NCBI GenBank assembly: GCA_027382625.1
Contig: JAJKFJ010022083.1
Span: forward strand, 1 to 64,000
Reading direction: 5' to 3'
DNA length: 64,000 nucleotides
Source of the DNA: Tetmemena sp. SeJ-2015
Taxonomy: Eukaryota; Ciliophora; Spirotrichea; Sporadotrichida; Oxytrichidae
Shown here: positions 26,831 through 64,000 of the stretch, piece after piece
How positions within the stretch are numbered: the stretch's first letter is position 1
Layout: every line of letters begins with the position of its first letter
Made by a program: the position numbers and the translations under genes
Notes under the pieces: generated by a model
Database searches by the model: none
The model's input: only the letters and a program-made list of their open reading frames with translations
Told to the model about the DNA's origin: nothing

Positions 26831-28749
26831 ATTAATTAAAAAAAAGATGTTTTAAAATAATTGACAATGTAAAAATAAAAAACTATCTTGATATGATAAA
26901 TAGTTTAAGTTATTTATAAGAGAGTATTTAATAAAGGAATTTATTAGTGAGATGATTATTTTTGTAATCCCTGATTAAATTAATATTAAAACATTTGATA
27001 CTCTAATTTGTTGATGATAATTTCTGGCTTATTTAAATAAATAGCAAGAGTTGATTTATAAATTATAAATGAAATTTTAAAATAATTACATTATAAATGA
27101 TAAATTGATAGTTTCTCTTATGAATAAATTAAAAGGTTTATAACACAGCCTATACCTAGAAAAACAAACTCTTCTAAATAGAGCTTTTAATGATTAGCTC
27201 TCAAAGTATAAAATAGTGGTCGAAGTATATTCGATATTTTTATTTTTTATTTTAGTTTAGAATTATCTAATTTTATAAATATAGGATGAATAGAATTAAG
27301 TTACCAAAATTAGATTGATTAATTTAGAAAGTTATTTAATTCGCGAATTTATCCCATAATTAATATATTGCATTATTAAAACTCAGATTTTGTTTTTAAA
27401 AGTTTTTTCCTTCAAAAAAATCAGCTTTGATGAAAATTTTCTGCTGATTTATCTTTTTCGGTTAGAAAAATGAAAGATTTTTTTCTAGTCATAAGTTATA
27501 TGTCAAGATTACTAAATTTTCATAGTTTATAGACAAGATGGAAGACTTTTGAGAATTTCTATGCTTAAAAGTAAAATGGGAGACTGAAATAAAGAAGCCA
27601 AAGAACTCAAGTTTCAAATTAAATCCTAAATTATTAGAAGACGTGCACTGATTTAGAGGTCTTGCTTAGAAATACTTGCAAGCTACTTTATCTTTCGTGT
27701 AGTTTTGTCTTTTAATCAAAAATTTTGTGATCATCTAATTCTATTAATCCTATAATTCAATTCAATTATTTTTGAATTTTAAGTTCTAAATTTATTGTGA
27801 AATTTATTTTATGATATATTTAATTACTAATTAAAAAGCTTAAAGATAAAATTTAAAATTTGATAAAGTTATTTATGAATGGAGCCTCATTCACAATGTC
27901 TAGGATGTATTTTTGGAAAAACTATGCCAACTTATTATAATTTTATTTACAAATATATTTATTGTTAATTATATTTAAGATTAAGAATTTAATACTTATT
28001 ATTATTTAAATTGATATAATATATTATTATCTTATTGTAATTTTAAGATTCTTCAAACCTTACTTTAAAAATAAATAATACAATGAAAACAAATGATGAT
28101 GCTTAAGTATGAAAGAATTTAATTAAAAAATATTGAAAAGGGTATCTTTATTCCAGAATTAAAATAATATTTGAGAAGTATAGACAATGTAGATATATTT
28201 AATAGTTATTAAAAAAAATGAATTCATAATCCTTAGAAATGTATGAAATCTTATAATTTTTGTTTAAGGCATGTTTGTGTTCAAATTATTGAATGAAAGT
28301 AACTTATATTATAAATTATTGAAAATAATAATTAGATATGAATAATTATTTTAACTTAAATGATCAAGTCAAGTTCGATAGATTCTTTTTCAGAAAAGCA
28401 GGAACATTAACCACCAACTAAGCAACTTATTTAATTTATTTACAAATTAATAGCTCATTTAATTATCATTTTGATAATTAAAATTGATACATAAAATAAT
28501 ATGATTATTTAATCTTAATGATTGTCGGTGATAAAGAATATAGGATTGAAGATATAGTACTAACTGTAAAAGAATGATTACTGAAAATCTTTATAGTCTG
28601 TAATTCATATATGATTAATTTATAGTGGTATAATTATGGGTTGCATTATTTATTGGCAATCCAGAAGCTTAAAAGTAAAGACAGATGCTCAAGTTGAATC
28701 GTAATTAACATAGATGTGTGCACTCTTTTTTTTTATATTAATTGATAGT
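26831..28749. other. AT-rich stretch; one TATGGG-type end at about 27281
   Basis: The motif ATAGGATGAATAGAATTAAG at 27281 belongs to the TATGGG family, with no partner recognised. Otherwise nothing is supported. Confidence 0.4.
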
Positions 28750-33432: not shown

Positions 33433-33624
33433 ATGACGTCTTAGTACGTTCTTGACTTTTAAATAAAATAATACTTAAGTGGAAATAACAACCACCTAAT
33501 GAAGAACCCAGTTGATAGCATTGGCTCTGATGAAGTTATTTTTAAAGTTTTCAGAATATACGGATAAGGTTTGATGTTCTACAATTATGCTTATAATATT
33601 ATTCATCTAATAAATTTTGGATGA
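33433..33624 (+). CDS. N-terminal coding segment with ATG, 63 codons
   Basis: The ATG at 33433 opens MTSQYVLDFQIKQYLSGNNN, continuing through NPVDSIGSDEVIFKVFRIYG to a TGA at 33622-33624. The composition is well balanced. Probably the first retained segment of a gene, with the true boundary just before the TGA. Function unknown. Confidence 0.45.
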
Positions 33625-35928: not shown

Positions 35929-36369
35929 TCAATTATAGTTTGTAGTACTAATCTATGGAATAGATATTCTAGCATTGCTAAGCTTGATATTAGTATTCAT
36001 TGACACTCTAAAGTACATATCAATTAAAAAAAGCTTTGATTTGAAATGATTTTCCAAGTGTATTATAGATTTAGCGTTGATTTAGCGAAATTTTTTTTTA
36101 ATTTATTACCAGTACTTATAGTTAAGTTTTTATTGATGAGATCCCTACTGTAGTTCTTCATTCTCCTTGGCTGTTGAAAAGTGGTATTTTTGCGCCATCT
36201 AGGGCTCATTGGATAGCTCTTGCAAAATTAGGTGGACTTTATCCTGTGCGTTGACCCTCTATCTGCTCTCCTGGTGGAGTTAACTGGACTTTAATGTGGC
36301 AGGTGCCAATTGTTCATAAATGTAACCTCCTAATTAAGTGAGCCTCAAAAATTGAGGATTAAGCCAGAG
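35929..36369 (-). CDS. Outward-facing frame from the left palindrome arm, 146 codons
   Basis: The minus frame opens inside the left arm and runs out past the palindrome edge at 36064. The arm part reads LAPATLKSSQLHQESRQRVN, then DKVHLILQELSNEPQMAQKY, then TAKEYEELQQG. Beyond the edge it continues naturally (LFLIDMYFRVSMNTNIKLSN) to a TGA at 35931-35929. This looks like the complete copy, while the right arm has a different, AT-rich ending. Helical, Gln/Glu-rich; family unknown. Confidence 0.5.
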
Positions 36370-37485: not shown

Positions 37486-37575
37486 ATATTAAAAATTTTA
37501 ATTTTAGCGAAACTTCTTATCAATTTTGAGTATAAATTAATGATTAATTTTTTCTTATATTGTTTATAATTGTGA
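37180..37575 (+). CDS. Outward-facing frame from the right palindrome arm, 131 codons
   Basis: Mirror copy of the 36369-35929 frame for its first 100 codons. After 37485 it reads an AT-rich tail (LAKLLINFEYKLMINFF) to the TGA at 37573-37575. Probably a truncated duplicate. Confidence 0.4.
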
Positions 37576-38360
37576 TCTATAAATATATATATATTAAATT
37601 TCTTTCGATAGTGCTTATCAATTTACTGTCGAGACTTGGGCAAGAAGACTGATAGCAGATAATTCATTTTACAATGCCCCTCAATTTTGGTCTTTTGTTC
37701 CTTTAAAATTAATATAAATTTAGAATGATATATCCTTTAGTTGTTTCGAGTAGTTCCTAAAATTACTATTCATAAATTATAAGATTATTCTGTATCTTAA
37801 ATTTTATATAATTATTTTTCCTTATTGAATAAATAATATTATTTCCAGCAAACTTTAGATTATGTATCTTCACTTTGTTTATATCACAACAATATGAAAT
37901 GACATGCCATCTAAAAATGAACAATAAATATAATTGAATCTCTCAAAATATAATATGATATCTCAAATTAGAGAAAATTTAGATTAAATATATAAATATA
38001 ATAAAAAGGAAATATGAGATATTTTTATATAATTGCAAAATTTATGCAGCAATTAAATTATATTTTCAATTCGTATGCCATGATTAATAACAATTTTTAA
38101 TATTATTAATGCTTTAAATTTAATTAAAAAGCTATAAACAAACTAACTAACCAATACTTTTCTCAATTATAAGCAAATTTCTTATTAAAAAAAAAACTTC
38201 TAATCTTTACTCAAACTGAACCTTTCAAAGATATTTTTAAATTTTAGAAAAGTCAAAGCAAATAAACTTATGGTGCCTAATGAATAGATAATTTAAAGGT
38301 TTTTTATTTATGATTTGAAAAAGTCAGAAAACTTTACTAATAAAATAAAATTAATTTAAC
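37576..38360. other. AT-rich stretch without recognised features
   Basis: No supported feature. Confidence 0.4.
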
Positions 38361-46660: not shown

Positions 46661-47700
46661 TTTTTAATTTTTAAATAACCTATTCGAACTACTTACAATA
46701 GAAAATATACATTATTACTATGAAAAGTTTATTATTTATAATTAACATAGCAGTTTTAAAGCGAGGTGGCATCAAATAAAAAAAGATGATGAAAATAAAA
46801 AACAATTGGGGAAAAACTAATTATATTATTATAAAATATAGTTTAATAAACATAATCTAAAACCATTTATAAATATGATTTGCTATAAAGTATGAAATAT
46901 TTTATTTAATTATTATTGTTCATATTTTTGAAATTTATATTAGAGTCGAATTAAAATTATTAAAAAAAGAGTTACAAAAGCAAAACAAAACAAAATCCTA
47001 TTAAATTTTAATAAAATATAGACCTATCTCTCTTTTAAAATATCTGTGAAGAGAGATTTTTACAAAATTTGAACAATAAAATTTGCCAAGTTAAATACCT
47101 TGGCTTAAATAAATATTTCTTACGTACTAACTGAGAAACTGACAATAATGAAAGTTGCTTAGAATTTAATATTAGTAAACAAATTAAACGAAGGCTCATA
47201 CTTCAACTAACTGGAATAAATAGCTTTTAAATAAAATTCTATTCTAATTTTAAAAACTTCTCATCTTTATGTTTTACTAATTAAATTTGAAGCTGAATTT
47301 TCAAATTTATATAATAACAAAATGTTATTTTTTTTAGTCATGACTACAACTAAATGGCATTTCTTTTCATGGAGTTTTGTTAATAATCTCGCTCATAAAT
47401 AAATATAGATCATATAACAGCTGCATCTTTCTCAATTTACCATCAAATATATTTTAAATATAATTATTAGATATATCTTATTTCAGATAAATTAATTCTT
47501 AAATTATAATAAATTTATTTTGTATTTTTAAAAATACTTTTTGATTTTTATTTTATTCTTATATAATTTAGAATTTAATTATTAATTGATAAAAATAAGA
47601 ATGGAACTACAATTTGGTGACAGTTGAGTCACTTATTAATTTCCTGATAAATTGCTTTTACTAGAGCTAATCAAAAAATATTATTTATATATTAAAGGGA
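46661..47700. other. AT-rich stretch without recognised features
   Basis: No supported feature. Confidence 0.4.
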
Positions 47701-48279: not shown

Positions 48280-49110
48280 ATAGGATGAATACGAATACAG
48301 AATCAAGGGCAAGATATTTAAAATGAAAAGTTAAAGAAAGTTACTGAAGGAGTCGTGATGATCGATTTGTAATGACTACGGAATTAATAATATAGAAAGG
48401 AGTTCAAATCCCTCTAATTCATAACTTCAAATATTATTCGTTCAGCCCTGATTTTTCAAAATCTTTTAATTTTCCTTCTGTAAGGCCTTGACAAACGAGG
48501 ACGAAGCACTTGCCATCTGGGTTAAAACTTGGTACTGTAAGCGCTCCTTGTCGGCCGGGTATTGCTACAAAAATGTCACAAAAAAGGTAATTTTACTTTA
48601 TTAAATCCCACAATTATAGGGAAAGTGCTAATATTGAAGAAGATAGTAGGATGGATTTGAATTCACTTCTCTAAAGTTCAGTAAAAAGACGAAATGCAGT
48701 TGCTACTTACTGGGCAAGCTTGCTTCCTAGTCAGTAGTCAAATATCAGGGCTGAACGGATAATAATTAATGAATTAAATATCAAGTGAGATTTCAATCAT
48801 AGATTAGATTATCTCCAATAGCTCTATCATTCACCAAAATAAATGCGAGCATTAATATTCGGAGAAAATCAAAATCGAATCTGACATAGTCAGATAAAGG
48901 ATTGTTGTGTAATAAGATAGCCGAGTTGGTGGTGGATCCAGAATAATTATCAAATGGAATAAGGTTAAAACTTTCATTTCGGAATTCCAAGTAAAGTAAT
49001 AGTAAACACAAATCAGATTCAGAGAGAAACCAATAATTATTAAATTTGTAAAGCTTTTTATTGATCACTTTTTTTGTAATCAGCGATCTTCTATTCCTAT
49101 TCATCCCATA
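48280..49110. mobile_element. TATGGGATGAATA-family element with both ends, 831 bp
   Basis: The left end TATAGGATGAATACGAATAC pairs with the right end TTCCTATTCATCCCATA. The right third matches the repeats at 24.2 and 31.35 kb. A second element is inserted at 48433-48764. The minus-strand open frame 49104-48793 belongs to the repeat and is not a recognised gene. Confidence 0.6.
48433..48764. mobile_element. Nested 332-bp element with TTCAGCCCTGAT ends
   Basis: The left end ATTATTCGTTCAGCCCTGAT and the right end ATCAGGGCTGAACGGATAAT are inverted. A related end occurs alone at 6628. Confidence 0.6.
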
Positions 49111-49184
49111 TTATTGGGTTTTTATTTTAATATTTTTAGAATAAATACAACTTATTTTTATTGTAATAATAATAATTAAAGGGA

Positions 49185-49690
49185 ATTAAAGGGCCCCCGG
49201 CATAAATAAGATAGGCCGTGACGTCAATGATATTGCTAGGACGCACTTATCTGACGCACACAAACCTACCAGCCGAATAGGGATATTAAACACGTGGCAC
49301 CCACCTCACATTCTGAGCAGAAGCCCCCGGCTTCTGCAGACCATCCAAAAAAACCTAAAAGGAAAAAAAAATCCGGTAGCTTCGGACCGAGAGCAAGTTG
49401 CTGCTCCGTAGCGTCTGGCTTCGCTGTCCAATTGCATGACTGAGTGTTTGCCCATAGATCACATCCCTCCACGCCTAACAGGATTAGGAGGGTGAGTGGA
49501 AACCACTCACCTTTGATTATCTCTCCAGTGAGCAGCTCAACCACCTTCCCCAGGGCTTCGGCTGCCATTATCCCTTGCCTCTTTTAAGCACTCACCCACC
49601 AGCCAATGGATTACCAAACCAAAAAGCCTTCAGGGAAAGGGCGACCGGTGCCTAGTGCCGGTCGTGTGCGTCCTGAATTTTAACTTTCTA
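49185..49690. other. GC-rich island of about 500 bp
   Basis: Over 50% G+C in a 25% surround, with a hairpin GGTGAGTGG-AAA-CCACTCACC near 49491-49512 and GACGCACAC/GTGTGCGTC inverted near its ends. The right flank TTTTAACTTTCTAATTT also occurs just inside the outer tip of both Element 2 ends, hinting at a related element end. Confidence 0.5.
49266..49568 (-). CDS. Possible gene fragment in the GC-rich island
   Basis: ATG at 49568; the frame begins MAAEALGKVVELLTGEIIKG. A 35-bp GTGAGT...CTAATCCTGTTAG stretch right after GEIIK has the form of a short intron and would splice to VEGCDLWANTQSC. The composition is unlike every other coding segment here, so it may be foreign or noncoding. Unassigned. 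Confidence 0.25.
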   Translation of the reverse strand: MAAEALGKVVELLTGEIIKGEWFPLTLLILLGVEGCDLWANTQSCNWTAKPDATEQQLALGPKLPDFFFLLGFFGWSAEAGGFCSECEVGATCLISLFGW

Positions 49691-50721
49691 ATTTAATAAT
49701 TTATTTTTATTGAATGATATAATTTGTATGCTGAAAATTTGTATGGCAATAATTTTGAAGCAATAATCTTGAATTTAATTTTAAAATAATGATTTGTGTA
49801 TTTATATTAATAATTATTTATCAAGTTGATTAGAATATACAGTTGGACTAATTATAATTTGAAAATTATTAATTCAATTACTGATATAATTTTATTGATG
49901 TTAAGTTTAAAAAAAGCAAATGAATCTAATAAGAATCAGTTGAATATTTGCTTTATATCTATAGCAGATTGTATTTGATTCTAAATAAGCAATTTATCTT
50001 TTTAATTTGTAATAATCATAACAATTACTTACCAAAATTTACGATGCGCTCATAATAATAAAATTAAAATTCTAGTGCTACCTGATTTAGCATAGTATAA
50101 TCTTTTAACTTATACCAAACAAAAAAGTAGCAAGTATTATTTTTATTAAAATATTTGAGAAGGTGAATTTTAAACCATTCAAAACTCGATAAATATTTAA
50201 TTTGTTAAAGTCAAAATAATACTCAGTTATAACTAATAGTAATTCGGAGATGATCAAAAGTATACAAAATATGAAAATGAAATTAATTATAACTCAAAAA
50301 TTTATTTTCAAATTATAAATTAATAATTATTAATTTTATAAAGTCTAGATAAAATTAATTTTATTAAAAAAAAAGCAACATACAAACTATATAATCGATA
50401 AATTATTTTGTAATGAACTCTTATTATATTAAGCATTTTATATTGGAAAATTGATTAAAAATAAATGATTAGATGAAATAATTAACATTATAGAGCAAGT
50501 TTAAATTACTTATTCTGAATCTTAAATTTGTTCTAGAAAAAATATAAGATGCTATTATTGAAGCACATCAATAGGGCTGCTCTGTTGTAATTAATTATTA
50601 CATATATTTATGCCACCTCGATTTTGCTTTACTGAGTAGAAACTCAGTTTTTACTGTATATAGCCAGTGTTTTTAAAACTTACACAAGTTTAGATAATTT
50701 GAGTTGAATTCAAGATTTTGA
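49691..50721. other. AT-rich stretch without recognised features
   Basis: No supported feature. Confidence 0.4.
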
Positions 50722-51191: not shown

Positions 51192-54100
51192 TTAAAGTAA
51201 TTTATGATTTAATATTCTCTGCTAGGGAAGGGGTTGTACTTTAGAATAGGTTCAAGTTAATCTACTGTAATTATGAAGAGCATGAAGATCTACAAGTATG
51301 CTAGGTTGCAAAATGAGTATTAATTTAGTATTTAAAATGATGACTTGGATACAGATGTGTATGCAGGGAGCTAATGCTCACCATTAGGAACATAACCAGC
51401 TTGCGACATCTGTCCAAGAGAAACAGGAGTCATTTATAATAAAATTAGTCTGCTTGAGCACTTGCCCTTTAAACACATATGGTCCAAACTGCTCCCCTTG
51501 TCATCCCATGTGTGGCCATTCATTACTCAATTTTTTTAATTTTTAAACAATTTTGCATTATTCTAAATAAATATTTGTAATATAATAATTTACTCATAGG
51601 GTATCAATCATTTATGGAAACCATTAAAATTAATAACGCGCATTATCATACCTATGAATAAATTATGAAATCAATAGATTGAGTTCATAATATTTTATGT
51701 AATAATTATAAGATATAAAATAATTAATTTATAAAATATCACTATTCCTTTTTATTTCGAAGTCGAGAACTTAAAATAATCAAGTATCAATTTATCCTAA
51801 AAGTGAATCAAGAAATTAAAATACTATCAAAATATTAAGTTTATCTTAATGCTATGAGCCATAGACTAAAATATTCTTAGTCTCCTACTTTTAATCAAAG
51901 TGTTTAATAATAATTTTATAATTTTTAATGATTGAATAAAACAGGCTTGTTATGAGCTAAAAGTAAGTAAGCCTCATTGATCCTAAGAATGGAAGCAATA
52001 GTAGCCTTGATTTATATAATTATTCCTTAAATTTGTTCATAAATTATGTATTCATTTCTAAGTAAATTTATTGCTCTGATTGGAGTATTTGTAATCCTTA
52101 TCAATGAATAAAATTTTAAGAATATTTTATTTTTTTTAAAAATTGAGAAGATATTAGTTTCTTTTTAACAAGGAAATATCTGTTAAACCAGAAAAGAGAA
52201 ACATTTTAAGAAAATAAATAAAAAATTTTATTATAAAAAAAAAAATTTTTTTAAGTTTTAATATTTTATTAAATAAATAATATGGAAAAAAAGGGTTGAA
52301 AATATATTGTTTTTTGTTAGAAATGGATCCACTGCAACTTATTCTTAATTTCGAAACCCTTTAAATTCATTTTAATTATAAATTTCATTTTTTTTTTTTA
52401 TTTTTTAAAAAAAAATTTTTTATTACAAAAAGAGTTTTAAATAATTTTTTTTTAAAATTTTTATAAAAATCAAATTTTTTTTAAAAATAAAAATATCTAA
52501 AATATTAATAATTTTATGATACATTTTATCCTTTTGAGTTAAATAATGATCCGCTTCATATAAATTAAATTTAAATGAAAAAGTGTAAATTTTATAATTA
52601 GTTAAAAATATCTGATTCTAAATAGATTTTATAATGAACTAATTCAAAAATACTAGCTCTTTAGCTAATTTATTTTTAATTAAAATTAATTATAAGAATA
52701 TTCAAGAGTTAAATATATAGTATATATTTTACTCATATTAATAAAAATATAGGGAAGATAATAATAGATTATATCGACATTTATTTCAGAAAAACAATTT
52801 ATTTACAAATGAGAAAGAAAAGACAAGAAGAGTCATTGTGTTTGTAAGCAATCTATTTTTAGTTCTACTGCGAGTTTATTGCTAAAGATTAGATGATTTA
52901 TCGTCTCTATTTAACTCTGAGTTTGCAATTTTAATTGAAAACTTTGCTATTATTATTGTCTGGATCCCAAAATTTATTAGGAATAATTTACCTTAAACTG
53001 TGATTGGAAAAAGAAGGTACGCTGGCTTTTAAAATTCCTGAAAAATACTGAAGTCTGAATTAGAGTTCAAGGCGGATTCAATGTTTTTATATTTGTGAAT
53101 GAAATCCCATTATCATTAATTTAATTTATAATTTAAAGACTTAATTTATTTTCAATTGAAGAAGTAAAATTAATATCTTTTGTATTTCGAATAATGATTT
53201 CTTGATCATCTATTCATATCCACCCTATTGTATGGCAAATTTTATATATATTTAAAAGTGAAATTGGAATATTATAATAATTGAATAAATAAAAGTTTTA
53301 TTATAAAATTAAGATCTTTATTTAAGAATGTGAAGTATTTTTATTTAATTCTTTTTAATTAATTTTATAAATTTTAAAATCAGAAGCTGATTTTAGTTAA
53401 ATCAGATTCTACAAAATACCATATAAATCATAATAAGAAGTTTTACACTACTATTTTGAATTTTTGAGACAGTATTTTTTAAAAGTAAAAAATGCATGAA
53501 TATAATAGGTAAAATATCAAAAGCTTGAAATTTTAAAATAATTGTGGTGATAAGTTTATTACAACACGAGCACAATGGCATGCTAGAGTTGCCATGCTAA
53601 CTGCGCCACTTGCTATGGCCCAAACTATTATCAGTGTACAAGTTGCATTACCACCACTTATTTCTTCAATGATACTGTATGTGCCACAAATTGCCAGGAT
53701 CCAGTCATCAAAATCATTTAACTCAAATTTAATTCAAACATATAAATACACAAATAAATAAACAACAAATATAATTAACAAATTCTTAAAATTAAATCTC
53801 TTTAAAGGAAAATTCAAAATTAATCAAAATTTGTTTAAAAATTTTATTTTAAAAGGTAAAATTAACTTATTTTATTTTTTTCATAAATAATTTTTAAAAA
53901 ATTTATTATAAAATAGGAGAAGTATTTTCCAAGTTTAAATAAATAATTTCTCGGTTATATTTTAGCTTTAAATTTGATATAATGTTTTTATGTACGGAAA
54001 TTAAGATTAATTAATATTCTGTTTTATTAAAAGTAAATATATTTATGCAATAAATATATTTACTGAGAAATGAAGAATAAAAAAAATTACATATAAATTT

Positions 54101-57100
54101 CTTATAGTATAGGATTGACGTATATTAGGGGTAATTCTTGATAAATACATTACACAATCCTAAGGTAGACTGAAACTTTATCGCCTATCTTAAATGCATT
54201 TCTATATACCTTGACATCCTTTAACTGCTTCCATCTCCACCTCAGGCGCTTCCACATAGTTTGGAACCTCGTCGTAGTTTACGAGAATGAACTTGTTGGC
54301 TTCAAGCATAAACTCCAGGTCAAGCTAAGTTGATTTAATTAGAATTCGCTATTGCATTGCCTACTTCTCCCAGTCGTTTCTCTCGCTTCCTTGATAGCGT
54401 GGATTCAATATTCTGTCTTGCCTGCGGCACTTCCATTTGTAATAATACTTGCACACCCTGCGCTTTATGTCCTGTAACTTAGGCAGCAGTCTCCTTAACC
54501 CAAATACTGCGCACTCGATGATGGTGACCTTGCGCGCAGAAGCCTTTCTCATTGACTTGTTGAGATCCTCGTAGGCGCCCAGGATCTTCTCTGCCCCTTT
54601 CACCAACTTAAACAGCTCGCATAAGTTCTTCTCAATTCGCAATCCTATGTCTCGCCATTCCACTTGCTTCATCCAATCGGCATATTTTATGGTAACCTGC
54701 CGTTGCTTATTTGTAATACCAGTTACCGAGAATCCTCCGAATGATCCTTCGAATTTATAGACTTAGGCTCGCTTGGAGTGGGATTAGCGCGCCGAGAAAC
54801 TCTGTGCCACCAATCTTAGCAAGTAGTTCCTCTAGTTGCTTATGTTTGCGCAGATCTTCTTCAAATCATTTTCAAAGTCTTTGAGTTCTGTGTGAAGGGG
54901 TGGGGGTGTAATGTTGGACTTTGACTCCATAGTCTCAAATGTCTTCTTGAGCTTTTTCCCTTGAGTCGCTTCGCTCGATTGTGAATAGCGAGGGAATCGT
55001 CGAAGGCGAAAGTAGACTGCCTGGACTTCTCGCTCGCTTAACATTCGCTCAGTGATCAACTGCTATTAAATCTGAATGACCTCCACCTTCTCTTCCTCCT
55101 AGTCGTCAATTTCTATCTCGATCTCATAGAGGCGGTTCAAGATTGCTTGAGTTTGTAACCCAGCAGAGGACGGCGGCGTCTAAGACTCTGGCTGATGCTC
55201 TTGCCTTGGCCTAGATACCTGCATTTTCCCTTTGCTCCAGATTGCAAGTGATCTTATTTTGAGTGGAGAAGTTTCCCCCTTTCCCAACTGCTCGGAGCTC
55301 ATTTTTATATTTCTACCTTCCCTCTCTGCAGATTGATTTCACTTTCTCAAGGAGGCCTCTCATTCTCTTGTTCCGGTTTTCTCCCTCGACTCGAATTTTT
55401 TTGCGCTCCTCAAGTCGGAGGGCGCCCTAAAGTTTACAAGATCTTTCCCTTGGAAGCCTCGAGTTTTTGGACGGAGCTTGTTGAGTTTCTTTGCGGGATA
55501 GGTTTGTGTGGCGTTTTGGCAGGGGGCAGAGCTGTGGACTTCCTGATTTCAAAGGTCTCAAAGCCTGGGCGGCGCGGGATTCCCGGCTTTTGACCCCTTA
55601 GCAGCAAATGGGGGAAAAAAGGGTTCTTTATAGTGGATGGCTTCGATCGTATGTTTTTTTCTCATCAACTCACCAAGAGAATTTTCCACTGCGAGGAGGG
55701 CCGACTAAAACTTCATAAAAGTTTTTTTCTTAGAGTTTTTAAGATTTCTTAAATTTTGCTGTTGCACTCTGGCCGTGCCTTTGGTATCTCAGGGAGAAAC
55801 CCCGATTTAGGGTGCCGACCCTTGCCGGGTTTTCGTGCTTGGTCCGTGAATAAAAATTTCATGCTTGCGAAGGGGTTCGTGTCATCCAAGACGAGGGTGG
55901 AGTGGTAGCGGTTGACCGGGGAGATGGGCCAAGGGGTTTTCCAAAATATTCCAGTTTGGCTGGCCCTTTATCATCTTTTTGATCAAATGTATCTTCATTT
56001 CAGAGGGGAAGAGGGTTTCCCCTCGACTAACCCCTGCTTTGGACTAAAATTGGGCATTGCTGACTCTTAAAAGGGCTTGGCTGAGCTGGGGGAGGTCGTC
56101 GTGGCTTTAAACGGACTCAAGATATAAGGGGGCGGAAACCCGCCAGGGGGAGGCGGTGGTTTGGGGGGCGGCCCCGCATTTTTTTTGATTTTAAAAATGA
56201 TCCGTTTAAAATTTAAAGGGAAGGGGGTGTTGGTGGGGGGGGGGGGGGGTTAGGATTCCCAAAAATTTTAATTAAGGAGGGGGGGGAAAGGTTTCCCGAA
56301 AATTTAATTTTTCCAATGAATCGCTGTTAAATTTCTAACTTTTACTCTACTACTACCCACTACTCTACCTTTCTATCTACTACATTCTACTACTCCCACT
56401 ACTACTACTACTTACTTTAAAAACTTCCCCCTTATTTTTATTAATTACTAAATAACCCATCAATTTTCCTTTAAATTTTTTTTGAAAATTCCCGGGTTTT
56501 TGGGGGAACCCTTTTATTTCATTAACTATTGCCAATTTTTGGGGGCCAAAACTTTAAAAGTTAAAAAAGGGGGTTTTTATTAAAATCAATTTTTTTTAAA
56601 AATTTTTAAAATTTAAAAAAAAATTTTTTCCCTTTTAAATTTTGGAATTTTGGAATTCCAAAAAGTTTTGAAATTGGCCAAATTTTTTTAGGTTTGTAAT
56701 ATATTTTAAGATTCCATTTAATGGTAACAAGAAACCAAAAATAATTTAAAACTACAAGGTCCTTTTAAAAAAAATTCCCCAAATTTAAAAGCCCAAAATT
56801 TGAATTTATTTATTTTTTTAACTAAAAATTCCCCTTTTAAAATTTAAAATAACTTAAAGTCATACACTGGACGTAAAATCCTTATCTTTAAATGATTAAT
56901 GAGAAAATGATTTGAATGTAATGGTGATACATATATTAAATTGGTATGAGTATTAATATAGTTATAGTACTATGGAGTAACTGAGACTATAAAATCTGTT
57001 GCGGTTAAGACTTGTAAGAAGTGTCATTTGTATTGCTCAGTTTGTTCTGGAACTCTAAATACGCAGTGTTCAGCGTGTAACACCGGATATTTCTTGCAAA

Positions 57101-60100
57101 ATACTTCCATCTGCTACTCCACTTGTCCAGATGGCTAGTACCCTGACACAGCCACCAAAAAATGTCTTCCATGCCATACTTCATGCAATATAATATATAT
57201 ATTCTATCGAATAATGCAATAAAATAGTTAAATAAAATATGCAAGACTTGCACAGGACCTGCAATTAATAATTGCACAACTTGCACAGTAGCTACAAATG
57301 TGCAATAGGATGGAGTGTGCTAGGCTAATTGCAATACAGGATATTTCTCTAATGATGTTAAAGTTTACTCAAATACAAATATTTCTAAATTACATCTCAA
57401 ATTTATATTTTTATTAGATATAATTTAAAATTTATATGTTAATTTTAGTCAGAATTTAGATATCTAAATTAAAAAATAAAAATAAGTTACTTTGAAAATA
57501 CATATTTTTAAATAGAAAATTTATATTTCGAATCATCTAGCAAAAATTATAAAATTTACATTGCTCAAAACAAAGGACTTTTTTTAAAACTTTAAATCAT
57601 TCATTAAATTTTAGTATATTTAAAATATACCTAAAAATAAGCTATAAATAATTTTATAATTTTTGCAAATTTATTAAAGTATGATAATAATCCTTTATCG
57701 CGAATTGATTTTTTTCATTAAAAACTTGCAATTATTATCCCCTTCTTTGATTGGAGCTTGATACGTGATTGACCTGTTTTAAACTCTAGAGTAATTCTTG
57801 ATGCTTCAAAGTTCAAGCCATGCATATCCTGTAAATGCTTCTCTTTGTTGCAATTAAGTTCTATAACTTAACTATTATGTCTCTCGCGCCAAAGCGAAGC
57901 ATTCTGAAGGTAGTGCCTAGCTCACATTCAGTTAATTATGCTTCCCATTCTTGATTTGCTCTGTAATTTTGCTATAGGCAATTTTAGGTGGGCTTAGTGA
58001 TAGAGGAAAGGGATAAGTTTAGGAGAAGGCCTGAAATGATATTTCAAGTTTTGGCCTCGCCAATTTGAGCGTGAAAATTTTCCAAATTTAGCTAATGACT
58101 TATACCCTGAGAATGTTTTCAGTAGCCTTCTATTCTACTCTAAAAAGGGACATCCCCCTTTGATTGAGCAGCTTCTAAATGAGTTTGAAGTTTCTGCACC
58201 AAAGATCCATTTAAAATTTATAGTATCTGCATCCTTTTAAATAGCACTGTACAGAGAAAACTACACTCATACGATTCTAGACTTCCTTAAACTGTTCATT
58301 AAAATGCATTGCAGTTTCTAGCTAATTCTTTGCATAACACTTGGTTTTTCACAATCCAATTTTCAAGTGTGGCAGTCTTTCATGATTATCTTCAAATCAT
58401 AGAGTGGCCGTGCTCTATAAAATAATCTCTAAATGGTTAAAGATGTATTAGGGAAACTAATACAATTAGGATTAATCGTTCAATCTCTGAGTAAATAAAT
58501 CATTCCATTTTAAAACCACGAGATGAATCTTCAAATTTAATTAATTAACAGTTACTTATAGAAACAGCAATTAGTGAAAAGGCCTTCATTTTCTTGCTAT
58601 AATCTTCCTTATTCTTGATATTTTATATTAAAAATAGAATTAATATAAAGAATAATAAAATTTTATTAAATGATATTGATAAATTAATTAAATTAGTTTG
58701 CAGCCTTTGTAATTCTGCTTGCAAAACCTGCACTGGAGTTGGGAATGAAAAATGTCCCTCTTGCAATTATTTTTAAACACAGGATACTACTAAAGATATT
58801 AATTAATTTAAACTTACTTACAATGGCTAAGCACCACCTGCCTCACTTCCTGTTAAGATGGATACTACAAAGACAATAGTACTATTAACCAATTGTAAAT
58901 AATAGCATATATCATATAAGAGTGCATAGATTTAATTAATATTTTTATTATTTCTATCACAAATAATTTAAAATAAATTAATTATGAAAATCATTATTTT
59001 TATTTAAATAATATAATTGAGAATTAAAGACATAATCGATGATCAAATTCTTAAGAAAAACAAAGAGAAGAAATCTCAGAAGCCTGATTCTTATAATATT
59101 ACGTTTTAATTAGCTAATTAATTTAATTTTAATGTGGTCTTTAACTTCTTAGTTCTCAAAAAGTTGAAGGAGACTGGTGAAACTTTTGTATTGTAAGAAT
59201 GCAATTTTAGATTTGACTACAACTAAAACTCCCTCCTTTCCAAAGAAAGCATTCTTCCAGACCAACAGAGGATTATCTTCGCAGGCAAGCTTAACCAAAA
59301 AGTAAATTATTTCAAATTTTGAACACTTTTGACAGAAAATCATGGAAATCACTCTCGATAACAAGAATATCATTGTCTCATTACAATACCCAAAAGGGCT
59401 TTGCTCACAACAGCTTAAAACTCAGGAACATGCTTTGGTATGAGTTCAAAATATTTATCTAAAGTTTTTCAAGAAAATTTCTTTACAAAAATATGCATTC
59501 AACCTCTCCCTTCATAAATAATTAAAAATATTAACTATTAAAACTGTCAAATATATTAGATATCAATTTTTTAAAAGTTGATCTCTACTAGATCAGTTTC
59601 TACAACCTACGATTATACATTAAATTCTCTAAAATATTTGGTATTGCAATAACAGTTGTTTGCAATGTCATTACTCTTAAATAAAATTCTTGTAACACCT
59701 GTTCTGCTGGAGGTCCGGATTCTTGTGTGAAGTGCACCTCTGGATATTTGAAACGAGGTTCTTATTGTGTTACTTAATGTGCAGATGGTGAGTTCGAAAT
59801 TAATGGAGAGTGCAAATCTTGCGATTCAAAATGCTCATCCTGCTATGGTACTCAAGACACTTAATGCTACACTTTTAGCAATGTATTTTAATTCTTGCGC
59901 TGAAAATGTTCTATTGCATTAGGTAAAACTTTTTAATGAAAATAAATAAAATAATTTATTTAAGATGAGGTCTAGGCTATTTTTTAATTAACTTTGCATA
60001 ATTTAACTGAGCAATAACTGGGCTTGGTTACTATTATCTAAGTGATTAGTGCCTTGTAAAGTGTCCTGAAGGATTTTTCCCTGATAATCTGAGAAGAGTA

Positions 60101-63100
60101 TGCTTAAAATGCCCCTCAAACTGTGCTACTTGCATCAGTGCTACTTATTGCACATCTTGCATATATGGTCCTTACCAACTTAATAATGGTGAATAAATAA
60201 TATTTATTTGAGAATGCACCTATTTCACTTGTCTCGACACATTTATAAAATTAACACTCAATATAGGTCAATCAAGCCTATCCTGTCTTGCTATGGCTGT
60301 GACAATTCTTGCTTAACTTGCCAAGGATTCAGCAAGTTTGACTGTATTTCATGTCGTGCTCAGGACCAATTTTTGAGCTAGCAATATATATTAAATTATT
60401 AAATCTTGATTTTTATCATAATTATTATTAATGCCTTTCGTGTGACTAATAACCAGGCATGACTTATCCAAGTGATGGTAGCTCTACTTCTTGTGTTGAG
60501 ATTTGTGCATTAATATAATTTATTTAAGTTTAATAAATATGTGGAGATGGTTTTAACTATGGTTAAGTATAATGCGATGATGGAAATATTATAAATGGAG
60601 ATGGCTGCTCTTCCAAATTAATACAATATTTTTAATGTACGATTGAGAGTGGATTCAACTGTACCTCAGGTTCTAAATTCAGTCCAAGTGTGTGCATGGA
60701 TAACTAAAACCCAACACCAAGAATAAGTTTGGTTGGATCTGATAATTCAGTTTATGTCTCCTTCGACGAAGAAGTTTACTTGCAGCAAACCCTTAGCACC
60801 TCCAACGTTCTTATTTTAAATTATTGAAGTGAGTGGCCCCTAAGGAACTTACAAGTTCGATTGGATGCTTAAGGATGAGTACAAAACTTCAGCAGCCGTC
60901 TAATTGATAGCCTTTAAACTAGACTTCTATACATCAGTAAAGGGTAGTCAAATGGAAACTGTGAAAGTATAATTCCTGAGTGATTCTGTCTATGTATTTA
61001 TTATAAAATTGAATTTAAGTAGATGCAACAGGAAACGGGCTTGTAACTATTCCACTTTCTTCTTATTTGAACAAGTATGACTATATCGATCCAGCTACTA
61101 AGGCAAACTTGGATTCTGCTTCAAGCACATCTATAATGGCAACTTATGGTGTTGTAGCATTAAACTTAGTAATATCTTAACTATTTGGTGGTTCAATTGC
61201 AGCTATGTGGACCATGGTCAATACTCTCCAACTAATGTCTCTGCTTCCCCTATGCAACGTTCCTTACTAAATATTAATTACCCAACTATAGTAATTATGG
61301 TTCTATAAAAGATGCTCACAACTCATGGTGAGTCAACGATGATTCCAAATGTTCCCTACACTTATCTAATTGACCGAAGTGGCTCTGCTGTCAAATTAGA
61401 AAGAGCACTTAATACTAGATTTAGTGATTACGGATGGGAGATCAGTAACTTTTTGTATTTAAGTGGAAGGAAGATAGTACTCTGGACTACACTGATATTT
61501 GTTAGAATTTTAAAATTGTGTACCCAATAGTTTGGTATATGAAAAGAAAGTATGCTGATAAGCACAAGCTTTGCAGACCTTGGGTTAAGATTGAACAAAA
61601 GTTCAGATATACTCTCTTGCTTAGAGGAGTAATTATGTCTTACGTGTCTATGTATTTGGCATTCATACTAGGCATATTCAAAATGAATCTTACAACCATG
61701 GAAAACTCCATATTTTACAGCATTTTATATATCTGCCTTCACAGCAATAGCATTTGGAATAAATAAATTAAATCTTGCTAACCTATTTGCCCATATTGCT
61801 AATGAACATACTTCAAAGAAACTATGAGAAAATCCAAACTGAAAAGTTTATGATATAGTACTCTACAATAGTGAAGGAAGTAGACCTGTCCCACCCAATA
61901 AGATACATGTACTATCCAGTTTTCCTAATGAGAAGAGCATTATTTGCAATACAGTTAGTGATTTTTGCAGAATCACCAAAACAGTAAATAGGTGTGATGT
62001 CATTCACTGCTCTAGAATATTATTTATTCTAGTGATGATAATCTATGTGATAGTGATTAAACCTCAATAAGATGTATTTAAAATATTTATAGATAGGACT
62101 ATGATGATATTGACTGCTCTAGGTGAGGGACTGATAATGTTTTTACACTTGTTCTCTTTGTTGTTCCTACAGGAGAACTTAACAGACGAGAAAGCAAATT
62201 AATACGGCTGGCTTATGCTAGTCACGATTGGGCTCTATATTTATAGATTATTATGAATTACCAAATTAATATAGAGAAAGTGTTTTTATTGTGAGCAACT
62301 GGATAATAATAGTGAGACTGACAATTGCCTAGCTGAGAGAGAAATGGAGGGACTACAAGTAAAACAAAATTACCAAGAAGAAGAAAGAAGAAGATGACAA
62401 AGAGTATTTCAAATGGAAAAAGAAGAGACAGATCAAGCAGGTCATTCAAGCTCATATTGAGAGAGAGCAGATTATTATCAACTTTTTTTTAGATGCTTAA
62501 TATGATGGAGTAGAAGCAGAGAGAAAGACAAATGAAAAACACCTTTGCATTTTATTTGGCTAGACAGAGGAAATTGATGATATGAAAAATCTTCCTCATT
62601 ATAACAGCTTCCGCCCAACTGAAATGGGATATAATCAATCCCCTTAATAATATAATCCTCTGATGATGAATAGCCCTGCTCATGGGTACGATCACTTTAA
62701 CTTCTAAATGCAGGCAGAAGAGGCCTAAGACTAAAGCTAATATCTGAATCTGCCCTCTGTGAGACCTAAATCTTAATTCGCCAGCCCTTTTTCTCCCTAA
62801 CATAGTATGGGTTCAAACAGATCAAAGTTCGGGTAAGTAAATGATTTGAACGAGGGTCAAGGAATGGGTCCCTAGGATTAAGAATTTGGAATGTAACAAC
62901 TAGTAAATGAGGATGGAAATGACGAGTAAATGACCAATAGAGAGGCTTATTTTAATGCAACTGGAACTCAGCTGTTCCAAAAAGATAATTAAGAGGATCA
63001 AAATATTAATTCTAGTTCTCCCATTAATGAAAACAACTATATTCCAGAAAACTAACATGATAATCATCAGAATTAACCAAATTAATTCACCCTAGACATA

Positions 63101-63328
63101 ATACCTAAAATAAAAGATTTCATAATTATTTATTTTGATTTTTATATTTAAAATTTAATTAAATAAAACATGTAACAAAGAGAATAACAGAAATATTGGC
63201 ACTTTTATAAGTAAGTTTTAATTTTCACTTAATATTATTAATTTAGCATTGATTTCGCAAATTTTTTAATTAATCAACCTTAATAATTAGCCAGAGTTTC
63301 AATATTCAAGTTATGTGATTTATAATGA
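51192..63328 (+). CDS. Interrupted gene: membrane-anchored cysteine-rich (furin-like/DUF4215) surface protein
   Basis: Read across joined segments the product has, in order: a possible LamG-like end (YFRIGSSQSTVIMKSMKIYK); at least six furin-like cysteine repeats of C-x2-C-x3-C-x2-C spacing (CSPCHANCATC, CKKCHLYCSVC, CHTSCKTCTGP, CNSACKTCTG, CYGCDNSCLTC); one DUF4215-type repeat (CGDGFNYGQVQCDDGN, NGDGCSSKC); a folded linker; several membrane helices including MWTMVNTLQLMSLLPLCNVP; a Lys-rich loop; and a Gln/Asn-rich cytoplasmic tail. The tail frame is TGA-free from 62257 to 63326-63328. This architecture is a familiar ciliate receptor-like family of unknown ligand. The true start lies upstream of 51192, possibly beyond other IESs, and the last AT-rich 200 bp may be eliminated. 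Segments are collinear, so this gene is interrupted but not scrambled. Confidence 0.8.
51429..51447 (+). other. IES, 19 bp, pointer GTC
   Basis: GTC occurs at 51429 and 51448. Removal joins CDICPRETGV to CLSTCPLNTYG in frame. Confidence 0.7.
51502..53592 (+). other. IES, about 2.1 kb, pointer CAT (alternative GCCAT)
   Basis: CAT at 51502 and 53593 joins NCSPCH to ANCATCYGPNYYQC, giving a normal repeat. GCCAT a few bases on would also keep frame but adds PMCG. The interior is AT-rich, with a stuttered patch at 52190-52470 and a coding-like patch near 52900-53060. Confidence 0.6.
53881..55302 (-). CDS. Gene-like 473-codon minus frame nested in the 3.3 kb IES
   Basis: An ATG at 55302, preceded in frame by TGA 36 bp upstream, opens MSSEQLGKGETSPLKIRSL. 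Then come Gln/Glu-rich helices (LYEIEIEIDDQEEEKVEV), TERMLSEREVQAVYFRLRRF, ELKDFENDLKKI, then IEKNLCELFKLVKGAEKILG and KLQDIKRRVCKYYYKWKCRR. No TGA occurs until 53883-53881; the AT-rich end below 54120 is probably not coding. Between about 54845 and 54690 another frame gives better peptide (KQLEELLAKIGGTEFLGALI), so a frame change may exist. Mostly helical, possibly coiled-coil. Unassigned. Nested inside another gene's IES, opposite strand. Confidence 0.5.
55333..56870. other. GC-rich then stuttered, unreliable stretch
   Basis: 55.33-56.16 kb is GC-rich with a plus open frame (MISLSQGGLSFSCSGF...) but no family match. 56.16-56.87 kb has G13, AAATTTT and TTTGGAATTTTGG stutter plus a CTA-rich microsatellite near 56340-56420. 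I would not trust bases here. Confidence 0.4.
57183..57238 (+). other. IES, 56 bp, pointer ATGCAA
   Basis: ATGCAA at 57183 and 57239 (a third copy lies inside at 57214). Removal gives CHTSC-KTCTGPAINNC, an exact cysteine repeat. Confidence 0.85.
57362..58694 (+). other. IES, 1333 bp, pointer AGTTT, hosting another frame
   Basis: AGTTT at 57362 and 58695 joins GYFSNDVKV to CSLCNSACKTC. It contains the minus-strand frame 58348-57806. Confidence 0.8.
57806..58348 (-). CDS. Gene-like 180-codon minus frame nested in the 1.33 kb IES
   Basis: TGA-free from 58348 to the TGA at 57808-57806. It reads AMHFNEQFKEVQNRMSVVFS, then FKLIQKLLNQRGMSLFRVEQ, then SPPKIAYSKITEQIKNGKHN, then ALARETQQLSYRTQLQQREA. 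It uses TAA/TAG as Gln throughout. The plus strand is also open over part of this stretch but is poorer in charged residues. Probably a segment of a different gene, or a germline-limited gene. Unassigned. Confidence 0.5.
58896..59677 (+). other. IES, 782 bp, pointer TAAATAA, hosting the ubiquitin-like piece
   Basis: TAAATAA at 58896 and 59678 joins LLTNCKQ to NSCNTCSAGGPDSC in frame. Confidence 0.8.
59041..59500 (+). pseudogene. Ubiquitin-like segment, copy 3, inside an IES
   Basis: Reads FNFLVLKKLKETGETFVLQ (compare ubiquitin QIFVKTLTGKTITLEV), then LLSKESILPDQQRIIFAGKL (compare [20 protein letters not shown]), to a TGA at 59320-59322. A 34-bp GTAAAT...TTGACAG stretch follows that could be an intron. 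Beyond it the C-terminal strand is visible in another frame (LSHYNTQKGFAHN, compare LADYNIQKESTLH). Gly-Gly is absent. This is the closest of the three copies to ubiquitin. It may be a diverged ubiquitin-like gene segment or a remnant. Confidence 0.55.
59872..59893 (+). other. IES, 22 bp, pointer CTT
   Basis: CTT at 59872 and 59894. Removal gives QCYTCAENVLLHQ and takes the TGA at 59901 out of frame. Confidence 0.75.
59929..60022 (+). other. IES, 94 bp, pointer CTT
   Basis: CTT at 59929 and 60023 joins LLHQVK to LGYYYLSDQCLVKC. Confidence 0.75.
60191..60211 (+). other. IES, 21 bp, pointer GAAT
   Basis: GAAT at 60191 and 60212 joins QLNNG to ECTYFTCLDTF and removes a TGA. A further unresolved frame change follows between 60240 and 60275. 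Confidence 0.65.
60383..60429 (+). other. IES, 47 bp, pointer AAT
   Basis: AAT at 60383 and 60430 joins AQDQFLSQQ to CLSCDQQPGMTYP. Confidence 0.75.
60504..60539 (+). other. IES, 36 bp, pointer TGTG
   Basis: TGTG at 60504 and 60540. Removal yields SCVEICGDGFNYG, the expected start of a DUF4215 repeat. Confidence 0.85.
60616..60633 (+). other. IES, 18 bp, pointer AAT
   Basis: AAT at 60616 and 60634 joins GDGCSSK to CTIESGFNC, restoring DUF4215 spacing. Confidence 0.8.
60811..60820 (+). other. IES, 10 bp, pointer TTATT
   Basis: TTATT at 60811 and 60821. Removal joins TSNVL to IEVSGPQGTYKF and puts the TGA at 60824 out of frame. Confidence 0.8.
60994..61018 (+). other. IES, 25 bp, pointer GTA
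   Basis: GTA at 60994 and 61019 joins LSDSVYV to DATGNGLVTIP. Confidence 0.8.
61265..61278 (+). other. IES, 14 bp, pointer TTAC
   Basis: TTAC at 61265 and 61279 joins LLPLCNVPY to PTIVIMVLQ within a membrane helix region. Confidence 0.85.
61499..61515 (+). other. IES, 17 bp, pointer TTGT
   Basis: TTGT at 61499 and 61516 joins LWTTLIF to VYPIVWYMKRK. Confidence 0.85.
61678..61687 (+). other. Probable IES, 10 bp, pointer TC
   Basis: TC at 61678 and 61688. Removal changes frame from FILGIF to LQPWKTPYFTAFYI. A further 4-bp (TAAA) frame change is needed near 61760-61768 to reach LLTYLPILLMNILQRNYEK. These two could be indels instead. Confidence 0.45.
62011..62027 (+). other. IES, 17 bp, pointer TCTAG
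   Basis: TCTAG at 62011 and 62028 joins VMSFTAL to VMIIYVIVIKP and puts the TGA run after it out of frame. Confidence 0.85.
62247..62256 (+). other. IES, 10 bp, pointer ATTA
   Basis: ATTA at 62247 and 62257. The 10-bp segment ATTATTATGA contains the TGA. Removal joins GLYIYRL to PNQYRESVFIVS. Confidence 0.85.
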
Positions 63329-63439
63329 GCTAGATTATCTTACTTTAATATATAGTTACTCTTTGAATAGATAGAAATACAAGTAGCTACATTATCAGAA
63401 GTAATGTGATTCATTTGCCATAAGGTAGAATGGTTTTGC

Positions 63440-63640
63440 TAAACACAGTTAGCATCTAGAAATGGGGTTACAGTCGCTTGCAAAGACTCAGGGTAGTTGC
63501 TTCAAAAGAGTGATTGTCAATACATCTTCCAGTGAAACTTAGTTAGCCATTATCGAGGGCTAAGTGAGTCATTCATCCTTGCGTGTTTGGGCAAGATAGA
63601 GGTTCTTACTCAAAGCGAGACATCATAATGCAAGAAACGT
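63440..63640 (+). CDS. Possible ABC-C transporter segment (second membrane domain)
   Basis: One frame reads SRLQRLRVVASK. After a frame change it continues as VNTSSSETQLAIIEG and SSLRVWARQRFLLKARHHN. This order is like ABC-C (MRP) transporters: R-x-x-x-R-L-x-x-x-x-S-P...SET...G...S-I-R-A-F...F. The frame change suggests a small IES. It lies just after the cysteine-rich gene on the same strand. Confidence 0.35.
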
Positions 63641-63649
63641 GGAATGTCA

Positions 63650-63905
63650 CACCAGCTCTGTCCATTGAGCCTTCGCACTTTTACAATATTCCTTGAGTAA
63701 TAAAATCCCACACTCGAGATCAAGTTAGTGAATAAGGCAACTAGATCCGCATTTCAAAGACGAACGCAATGCCACACTCCTATCAACTAGCCAACTGCAT
63801 TACTAGAGGCACTTGCCTTTAATACTGCTCGTATGATCAGTACCCGAACCGACTCAAGAAATTTTCACTCTCCTCAAAAGTTCAGATCATTTTCAGATGT
63901 AATCT
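63650..63905 (-). CDS. Possible inverted ABC-C transporter segment
   Basis: The minus strand reads NAVGQLIGVWHCVRL, then TGA, then NADLVALFTNLISSVGF, like the late membrane helices of ABC-C proteins (W-L-x-V-R-L...G-x-L-V-x-L-F-x-x-L). If right, it is an inverted segment between two direct ones, as in scrambled spirotrich genes. The in-frame TGA argues for caution. Confidence 0.3.
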
Positions 63906-63950
63906 TGGTACCTCTTCTTTCTTAATTCCTTTTTTTGTTTTTGTTTAAAG

Positions 63951-64000
63951 GTTCATCTGAGGCAATTATACTCGATGAGGCTCTGAGTGCAGTAGACACC
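63951..64000 (+). CDS. ABC transporter Walker B/D-loop segment, cut by window edge
   Basis: Reads GSSEAIILDEALSAVDT. The AIILDE core is a Walker B motif with the catalytic Glu, and SAVDT is the D-loop of an ATP-binding cassette. It continues beyond the window. Just upstream, 63899-63950 starts GTAATC and ends TTTAAAG after a pyrimidine run, like a short intron. No ABC signature (LSGGQ) is visible upstream, so that part lies elsewhere or is scrambled. Confidence 0.6.

What the first reader, a model, noticed from the sequence alone, without database searches (positions are those of the whole stretch)
51192..63328. One gene split by about 20 pointer-bounded internal segments
Direct reading shows frame breaks or in-frame TGAs in a cysteine-rich membrane protein. 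At nearly every break a direct repeat of 2-7 bp (ATGCAA, AGTTT, TAAATAA, TGTG, TTATT, TTAC, TTGT, TCTAG and others) allows removal of the segment and restores both frame and cysteine or helix pattern. This is the germline MDS/IES layout known in spirotrichs, and it gives a precise, testable map.
Basis: partly seen in the sequence, partly recalled or inferred. Interest (0 to 1): 0.85.

Follow-up and report, generated by a model that had tools for sequence, protein, structure and literature searches.

The report
Ciliate germline gene in pieces
In a ciliate's DNA, one gene for a predicted cysteine-rich membrane protein is broken into more than twenty pieces by mostly tiny AT-rich inserts bounded by short repeats, which would likely be cut out to make the working gene, and sister copies carry the same junctions in plain or shuffled order.

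Summary
The finding is real and the reading is right, but its coordinates are too narrow and a few boundaries needed correcting. Eight relatives taken to be somatic (six named Stylonychia lemnae, two probably Oxytricha) match the gene at 62-72% identity over the region searched. Aligning window DNA to them while ignoring repeats gives 21 removed segments between 57.2 and 62.3 kb: 18 have the same length in all eight alignments, three in seven of eight. Those sites carry direct repeats far above an offset-shifted control: summed length 78 against 44.5 +- 4.7; 13 of 21 reach 4 bp against a control rate of 10%. Joining gives 1,186 codons without a stop, 69% identical to P0121 over 913 residues with three gapped positions. 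A GT-AG intron of the same length is possible at 2 of 21. The gene runs beyond the report on both sides, from 33.4 kb or earlier (probably 27.9) to a probable stop at contig base 66,454. Five paralogs share junction positions with different pointers. In two sister paralogs one segment is scrambled (8-12 bp pointers) that is in order in the window gene and two others. Known kind of system, useful paralog series. No somatic DNA of this species was found.

The parts
27863..28433 (+). Two probable N-terminal coding pieces (27863-27940 and 28359-28433), outside the reported interval; model positions 239-264 and 264-287, back to back
   Evidence: profile of 8 relatives, iE 0.016 and 0.39, collinear
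33439..33594 (+). N-terminal coding piece, model 333-374
   Evidence: iE 1.1e-6; tblastn E 5e-5
37556..37732 (+). N-terminal coding piece, model 367-424
   Evidence: iE 3.1e-5
47280..47426 (+). Possible N-terminal coding piece, model 439-486 (weak)
   Evidence: iE 0.63; only its order and strand speak for it
51240..51309 (+). Coding segment (MDS) ending ...KIYKYARLQN
   Evidence: profile iE 1.9e-8 for 51240-51428
51310..51333 (+). IES, 24 bp, pointer AAAATGA (found with pointer-aware scoring only)
   Evidence: join read in frame
51428..51446 (+). IES, 19 bp, pointer AGTC (junction J1, shared by the paralogs)
51520..53553 (+). Eliminated region with unresolved ends; relatives have about 35 residues here that I could not place; holds an interspersed repeat at 52744-53228
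53554..53709 (+). Coding segment YYNTSTMACQSC...CQDPVI
   Evidence: profile iE 7e-13
53710..56967 (+). Long eliminated region, ends uncertain; holds a multicopy 2.3-kb element at 54101-56412
57183..57238 (+). IES, 56 bp, pointer ATGCAA
   Evidence: same length with 8 of 8 relatives
57362..58694 (+). IES, 1333 bp, pointer AGTTT
   Evidence: 7 of 8
58765..58775 (+). IES, 11 bp, pointer AA
   Evidence: with the next one totals 38 bp in 8 of 8; split supported by a continuous paralog
58788..58814 (+). IES, 27 bp, pointer TACT
58883..59649 (+). IES, 767 bp, pointer TA; mostly one copy of a ~640-bp interspersed repeat (about 58996-59640)
   Evidence: 8 of 8; repeat
59675..59687 (+). IES, 13 bp, pointer TCTT
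   Evidence: 8 of 8
59872..59893 (+). IES, 22 bp, pointer CTT
   Evidence: 7 of 8
59912..60014 (+). IES, 103 bp, pointer TA
   Evidence: 7 of 8
60191..60211 (+). IES, 21 bp, pointer GAAT
   Evidence: 8 of 8
60237..60253 (+). IES, 17 bp, pointer ACAC
   Evidence: 8 of 8
60383..60429 (+). IES, 47 bp, pointer AAT
   Evidence: 8 of 8
60504..60539 (+). IES, 36 bp, pointer TGTG; absent from all four paralog groups
   Evidence: 8 of 8
60616..60633 (+). IES, 18 bp, pointer AAT
   Evidence: 8 of 8
60811..60820 (+). IES, 10 bp, pointer TTATT
   Evidence: 8 of 8
60994..61018 (+). IES, 25 bp, pointer GTA
   Evidence: 8 of 8
61264..61277 (+). IES, 14 bp, pointer TTAC
   Evidence: 8 of 8
61499..61515 (+). 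IES, 17 bp, pointer TTGT
   Evidence: 8 of 8
61710..61728 (+). IES, 19 bp, pointer ATAT; absent from all four paralog groups
   Evidence: 8 of 8
61758..61770 (+). IES, 13 bp, pointer AAT
   Evidence: 8 of 8
62011..62027 (+). IES, 17 bp, pointer TCTAG
   Evidence: 8 of 8
62070..62090 (+). IES, 21 bp, in frame, pointer AGAT
   Evidence: 8 of 8
62238..62286 (+). IES, 49 bp, pointer TATT
   Evidence: 8 of 8
62287..63092 (+). Last long coding segment in the window (hydrophilic tail)
63093..64000 (+). Start of a predicted 3272-bp IES (pointer TAGACA, second copy at contig 66365) holding an inverted-repeat element; the stop TGA would be at contig 66454

Best explanation
The window likely holds the germline (micronuclear) copy of a hypotrich ciliate gene for a predicted cysteine-rich, eight-helix membrane protein, whose coding segments are interrupted by at least 23 segments that would be excised as DNA at short direct repeats, one repeat copy being kept (MDS/IES with pointers). 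Shown: the inserts, the lengths of 21 of them against eight relatives, the repeats, the restored reading frame and the multicopy elements inside several long inserts. Inferred: that excision happens during development of the somatic nucleus and that it uses these repeats. Recalled, from no call here: that such excision is guided by maternal RNA and involves transposon-derived enzymes. Most inserts are 10-56 bp and very AT-rich; a few are 0.8-3.3 kb. The segments that could be placed are in linear order in this gene.
For: Eight relatives at 62-72% identity over the searched region, six of them named S. lemnae and lying on contigs of 6.07-6.37 kb. Repeat-blind alignment: 21 removed segments, 18 with the same length in 8 of 8 and three in 7 of 8. 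Repeat excess over shifted offsets 78 vs 44.5 +- 4.7. Joined frame: 0 TGA in 951 codons of 56968-62476 against 30-41 per unspliced frame; 68.8% identity to P0121 over 913 aa with 3 gap residues. Third codon positions differ from paralogs B, D and E at 57-59% of codons, second positions at 13-18%, so the gene is under selection. Five of eight predicted helices span a junction in the first map (simple hydropathy). Nine junctions are continuous DNA in at least one paralog (a tenth matched only in part and was not counted). W shares 7, 8, 8 and 7 of 13 junction positions with B, C, D and E within 3 residues against 1.4-2.0 expected. Telomere-type C4A4 repeats in the assembly, at base 1 of nine contigs.
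Against: No insert-free copy of this gene from the same species was found, so excision is not observed. That the eight relatives are somatic rests on a paper title and abstract for S. lemnae and on recall for the other two. Pointers at 8 of 21 sites are only 2-3 bp and would not stand alone. About 35 residues after 51519 and 7-8 before 56968 have no located coding segment. The N-terminal pieces at 28.4 and 47.3 kb are weak (iE 0.39 and 0.63), and off-order or off-strand matches of similar strength occur (11.3-11.6, 58.0-58.2, 66.7-66.9 kb). In the divergent tail after 62.46 kb the eight references call one or two further junctions each, mostly of different lengths (22 bp at 62468 in two of eight); I left these out.
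Confidence: 0.96

Rival explanations
1. The segments are spliceosomal introns removed from RNA.
For: A GT...AG pair of the same length exists near 2 of 21 sites (60493, 61999). Intron-IES interconversion is reported in PMC9797194 (section 10 read).
Against: 19 of 21 sites allow no GT-AG of the right length nearby; 13 of 21 inserts are 10-25 bp; the 767-bp insert is mostly an interspersed repeat; direct repeats are in excess; the same sites in paralogs have other lengths and repeats.
Confidence: 0.02
2. The locus is a decayed pseudogene with random insertions.
For: A literal reading shows stops in every frame. About 35 residues are unaccounted for.
Against: Removing the inserts leaves no stop in 1,186 codons; strong third-position bias of differences; inserts at the same sites in five paralogs.
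Confidence: 0.015
3. The breaks are sequencing or assembly errors.
For: The stretch around 56.2-56.3 kb looks poor (homopolymer runs).
Against: Errors do not make 10-56 bp AT-rich inserts bounded by direct repeats at sites shared with paralogs on other contigs.
Confidence: 0.005
4. The pieces at 27.9-47.4 kb belong to a second paralog and not to this gene.
For: They lie up to 23 kb upstream, some are weak, and this is a gene family.
Against: All are on the same strand and in the right order, and no 3' part of a second copy turned up upstream of 51 kb at iE below 1. In paralogs E and D the same N-terminal pieces sit in order just upstream.
Confidence: 0.15

Closest known systems
Nonscrambled IES-interrupted genes of Oxytricha trifallax and Tetmemena sp. 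(PMC9797194, sections 5, 6, 8, 9 and 10 read)
   Same: MDSs in order, short direct-repeat pointers, transposons inside inserts, junction positions kept while pointer sequences change
   Different: Another, unnamed species (146 Mb assembly); this gene's median insert is 21 bp, against a median of 73 bp reported for O. trifallax in PMC10901763 (section 18 read)
Scrambled genes associated with local paralogy (model of Gao et al. 2015 as described in PMC9797194, section 8 read)
   Same: Paralogs C and D carry one MDS moved upstream with 8-12 bp pointers
   Different: Here the in-order and moved states of the same segment are seen side by side in five paralogs of one genome
Stylonychia lemnae 'fu domain containing protein' family (P0123-P0128; three of the six are 'UNKNOWN' at NCBI and bear that name in UniRef)
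   Same: 62-66% identity over the searched region
   Different: Those are protein records on contigs of about 6 kb; here the gene is probably spread over about 38 kb

Membership tests
Hypotrich MDS/IES gene (nonscrambled) | Short direct repeat at both ends of each removed segment | tested here: met
   21 sites: summed length 78 vs 44.5 +- 4.7 at shifted offsets; 8 of 21 only 2-3 bp
Hypotrich MDS/IES gene (nonscrambled) | Removal restores the somatic reading frame | tested here: met
   Eight relatives from other species
Hypotrich MDS/IES gene (nonscrambled) | Segments absent from the somatic genome of the same species | not testable with these tools
   No somatic copy of this gene found in the held assembly
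Hypotrich MDS/IES gene (nonscrambled) | TAA/TAG read as Gln, TGA as stop | tested here: met
   1,186 codons open under table 6 with a TGA end
Hypotrich MDS/IES gene (nonscrambled) | C4A4 telomere repeats in the genome | tested here: met
   67 matches of a 20-mer, nine at contig base 1; the built-in reversed control is uninformative because the pattern reads the same backwards
Hypotrich MDS/IES gene (nonscrambled) | Segments in linear order | tested here: met
   All located segments are collinear; two short stretches unresolved
Scrambled gene (paralogs C and D) | Permuted segment with matching pointers | tested here: met
   C: GAAAGTGT and GATAGTTGCACT; D: AGGAAAGTG and TGATAGTTGCA; joined peptides match the order in the relatives
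Spliceosomal introns | GT...AG ends | tested here: not met
   Possible at 2 of 21

The most novel reading that the evidence does not exclude
Five paralogs of one genome record the birth of a scrambled gene step by step. One junction (J1) is an ordinary IES in the window gene, B and E; a second junction (J2) appears as an ordinary IES in B; and in the ancestor of C and D the segment between J1 and J2 moved upstream, with pointers of 8-12 bp at the same two places. Scrambling would thus reuse pre-existing IES junctions.
Probability: 0.5. Interest if true: 0.7.

Novelty: new member of a known kind. Interest (0 to 1): 0.45.

Why it matters
The map is checked against proteins of related species without use of the pointers, so it is a test of the pointer rule and not an assumption of it. 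The paralog family gives a small series (in order, in order with both junctions, scrambled) for the open question of how scrambled ciliate genes arise. It also shows that a gene found by eye in 12 kb probably spreads over about 38 kb of germline DNA.

Tried and rejected
First joins that the relatives corrected: 59677 (10 bp), 60385 (44 bp), 61498 (11 bp), a missed in-frame 21-bp insert at 62070, an unresolved 59870-60017, and an AGT join 53703/56976 that skips residues present in relatives (vs 66, 68, 71). A candidate coding piece at 52866-52925 was dropped because it lies inside an interspersed repeat. A piece at 48509-48601 was dropped because a similar stretch occurs in C1622 outside the gene order. 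The first protein search (916 residues) could not list the close relatives, which are longer than its length window, and its repeat with the C-terminal part gave nothing. Pfam gives only weak or generic cysteine-rich matches; the VSP match (4e-8) is read as cysteine spacing, not kinship. No structure was predicted.

Full report
What was checked. The window is part of contig C3000 (68,935 bases) of an unnamed 146-Mb assembly. Read with TAA/TAG as Gln, pieces of a cysteine-rich protein with a hydrophobic second half appear in changing frames from 51.2 to 63.1 kb. TGA occurs 30, 41 and 39 times in the three unspliced frames of 56968-62476 and not once after joining.

Relatives. With the full joined sequence as query, the third protein search found eight proteins of 1,773-1,970 residues at 62-72% identity over the whole searched region (residues 470-1030): six named Stylonychia lemnae and two (P0121, P0122) with EukProt numbers that I recall as Oxytricha trifallax; no call shows that name. 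The six lie on contigs of 6.07-6.37 kb. That the public S. lemnae genome is macronuclear rests on the title and start of the abstract of PMC4122937 (search listing); that the two others are somatic is recalled.

Repeat-blind test. I aligned 56900-62700 to each of the eight proteins with a dynamic program that allows any deletion at a fixed cost and does not look at repeats. Twenty-one deletions recur: 18 with the same length in 8 of 8, three in 7 of 8 (57362, where P0128 gives 1330; 59872 and 59908, which P0127 merges). Further calls after 62.46 kb, one or two per reference and mostly of different lengths, were dropped before counting because the tail is divergent. At the 21 sites the longest direct repeat at exactly that offset sums to 78 bp within 8 bp (80 within 12); the same sites with offsets shifted by multiples of three give 44.5 +- 4.7 and 50.6 +- 4.7, and none of 50,000 draws reached the observed value in either. 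Repeats of at least 4 bp occur at 13 of 21 sites against a control rate of 0.10; at the other 8 they are 2-3 bp. An earlier test with nine junctions whose length is fixed by a paralog that is continuous there gave 35 against 15.4 +- 3.3 (within 4 bp), 19.2 +- 3.4 (8 bp) and 21.9 +- 3.4 (12 bp, p = 0.001).

Product. The joined segments from 56968 give 1,186 codons to a TGA at contig 66,454, and 68.8% identity to P0121 over 913 residues with three gap residues. Differences from paralogs B, D and E fall at 57-59% of third, 23-30% of first and 13-18% of second codon positions, as expected for a gene under selection. A simple hydropathy scan predicts eight helices, five of which span a junction; this was computed on the first map. 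Inserts under 110 bp have 12% GC, coding 38%; the median insert is 21 bp, the shortest 10.

Extent. The reported end lies in an inverted-repeat element with 1,311-bp arms, 99% complementary, at contig 63207-66363. A TAGACA repeat at 63093 and 66365 joins the tail to ...NSNNGEASNVGPTADDQLNIAQENTSSN and a TGA; a shared 6-mer between two 70-bp stretches is common by chance there, so this join rests on frame, the element and the short end to a stop. Upstream, a profile of the eight proteins finds collinear plus-strand pieces at 27863 (iE 0.016), 28359 (0.39), 33439 (1e-6), 37556 (3e-5), 47280 (0.63) and 51240 (2e-8), and perhaps 17820 (0.63); off-order or off-strand matches at 0.37-0.66 occur too. 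The gene thus reaches from 33.4 kb or earlier, probably 27.9 kb, to the end of the window, and probably to 66.45 kb.

Inside the inserts. Whole-genome DNA searches show multicopy elements at 52744-53228, 54101-56412, about 58996-59640 and from 63.2 kb; the listed copies are a capped part (40 of 143 and 40 of 217 candidates scored). The 767-bp insert at 58883 is mostly one copy of the ~640-bp repeat; in the 1333-bp insert no copies were listed. Repeated inserts at unrelated loci are reported as 'mobile IESs' in PMC10901763 (section 18 read).

Paralogs. Four paralog groups were mapped: B (C3049, 19.8-23.7 kb), C (C3049 minus strand, with C1105), D (C3384, with C1502), E (C2397, with C1622 and C1192). 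Between residues 285 and 950 the window gene shares 7, 8, 8 and 7 of 13 junction positions with B, C, D and E within 3 residues; random placement gives 1.4-2.0. Lengths and pointers differ. These paralog maps are pointer-aware and use the first window map, in which several sites were later shifted by a few residues and one insert (62070) was missing.

Scrambling. In C, the segment KCLSKCSDNTYGDSCT lies at 40838-40789 on the minus strand, upstream of the segment it should follow. The pointers are GAAAGTGT (40838 and 40447) and GATAGTTGCACT (40800 and 40429); the join reads CPRETGKCLSKCSDNTYGDSCTPCHPFCGHC, the order seen in the relatives and in the window gene. D has the same layout with AGGAAAGTG (26863/27056) and TGATAGTTGCA (26902/27075). 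C and D are sisters with support 1.000; the place of W beside them is weak (0.442). In W, E and B the segment is in order: J1 is an ordinary insert in W (AGTC, 19 bp), E (TGGA, 32 bp) and B (AACTT, 34 bp); B also has a likely insert at J2 (TAT, 22 bp), read by eye and giving a peptide about two residues shorter than the relatives. The scrambled state is therefore probably derived in the C/D ancestor. PMC9797194 (section 8 read) reports that scrambled genes go with paralogy and describes a duplication-and-decay model; two searches listed that paper and others, and I did not look further for a paralog series of this kind.

Verdict. The observation and its interpretation stand. It is a new member of a known kind; the paralog series is the part worth following.

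Noticed in passing
window 61332-61422 and C1924:7668-7758 (minus): A 91-bp stretch of coding sequence is repeated with 100% identity in another contig; beyond it the flanks do not match. An isolated copy of part of a coding segment.
   Followed up: partly
C3000:63207-66363: Inverted-repeat element with 1,311-bp arms (99% complementary); related ~170-bp ends occur in inverted pairs about 3 kb apart in three other contigs of the list (C3480, C1779, C2713).
   Followed up: partly
window 54101-56412: Multicopy element of up to 47% GC in an AT-rich locus, copies of 66-99% identity in many contigs, a 429-residue open frame on the minus strand without Pfam match.
   Followed up: partly
window 57762-58615: Open frames inside the 1333-bp insert with no convincing family match and no copies listed in the genome search.
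   Followed up: no
window 49176-49728: Stretch similar in several frames to C1622:2807-3390 (66-88% at protein level), probably another repeat.
   Followed up: no
window 36037-36261 (-) and 37297-37449 (+): Nearly identical open frames in inverted orientation, likely parts of another element.
   Followed up: no
C298, C586, C672, C739, C770, C1030, C1301, C4311, C4966 at base 1: Contigs of the assembly that begin with C4A4 telomere repeats, perhaps somatic chromosomes mixed into a germline assembly.
   Followed up: partly
C1105 and C3049: Two copies of paralog C, 85-98% identical by segment, perhaps haplotypes.
   Followed up: no
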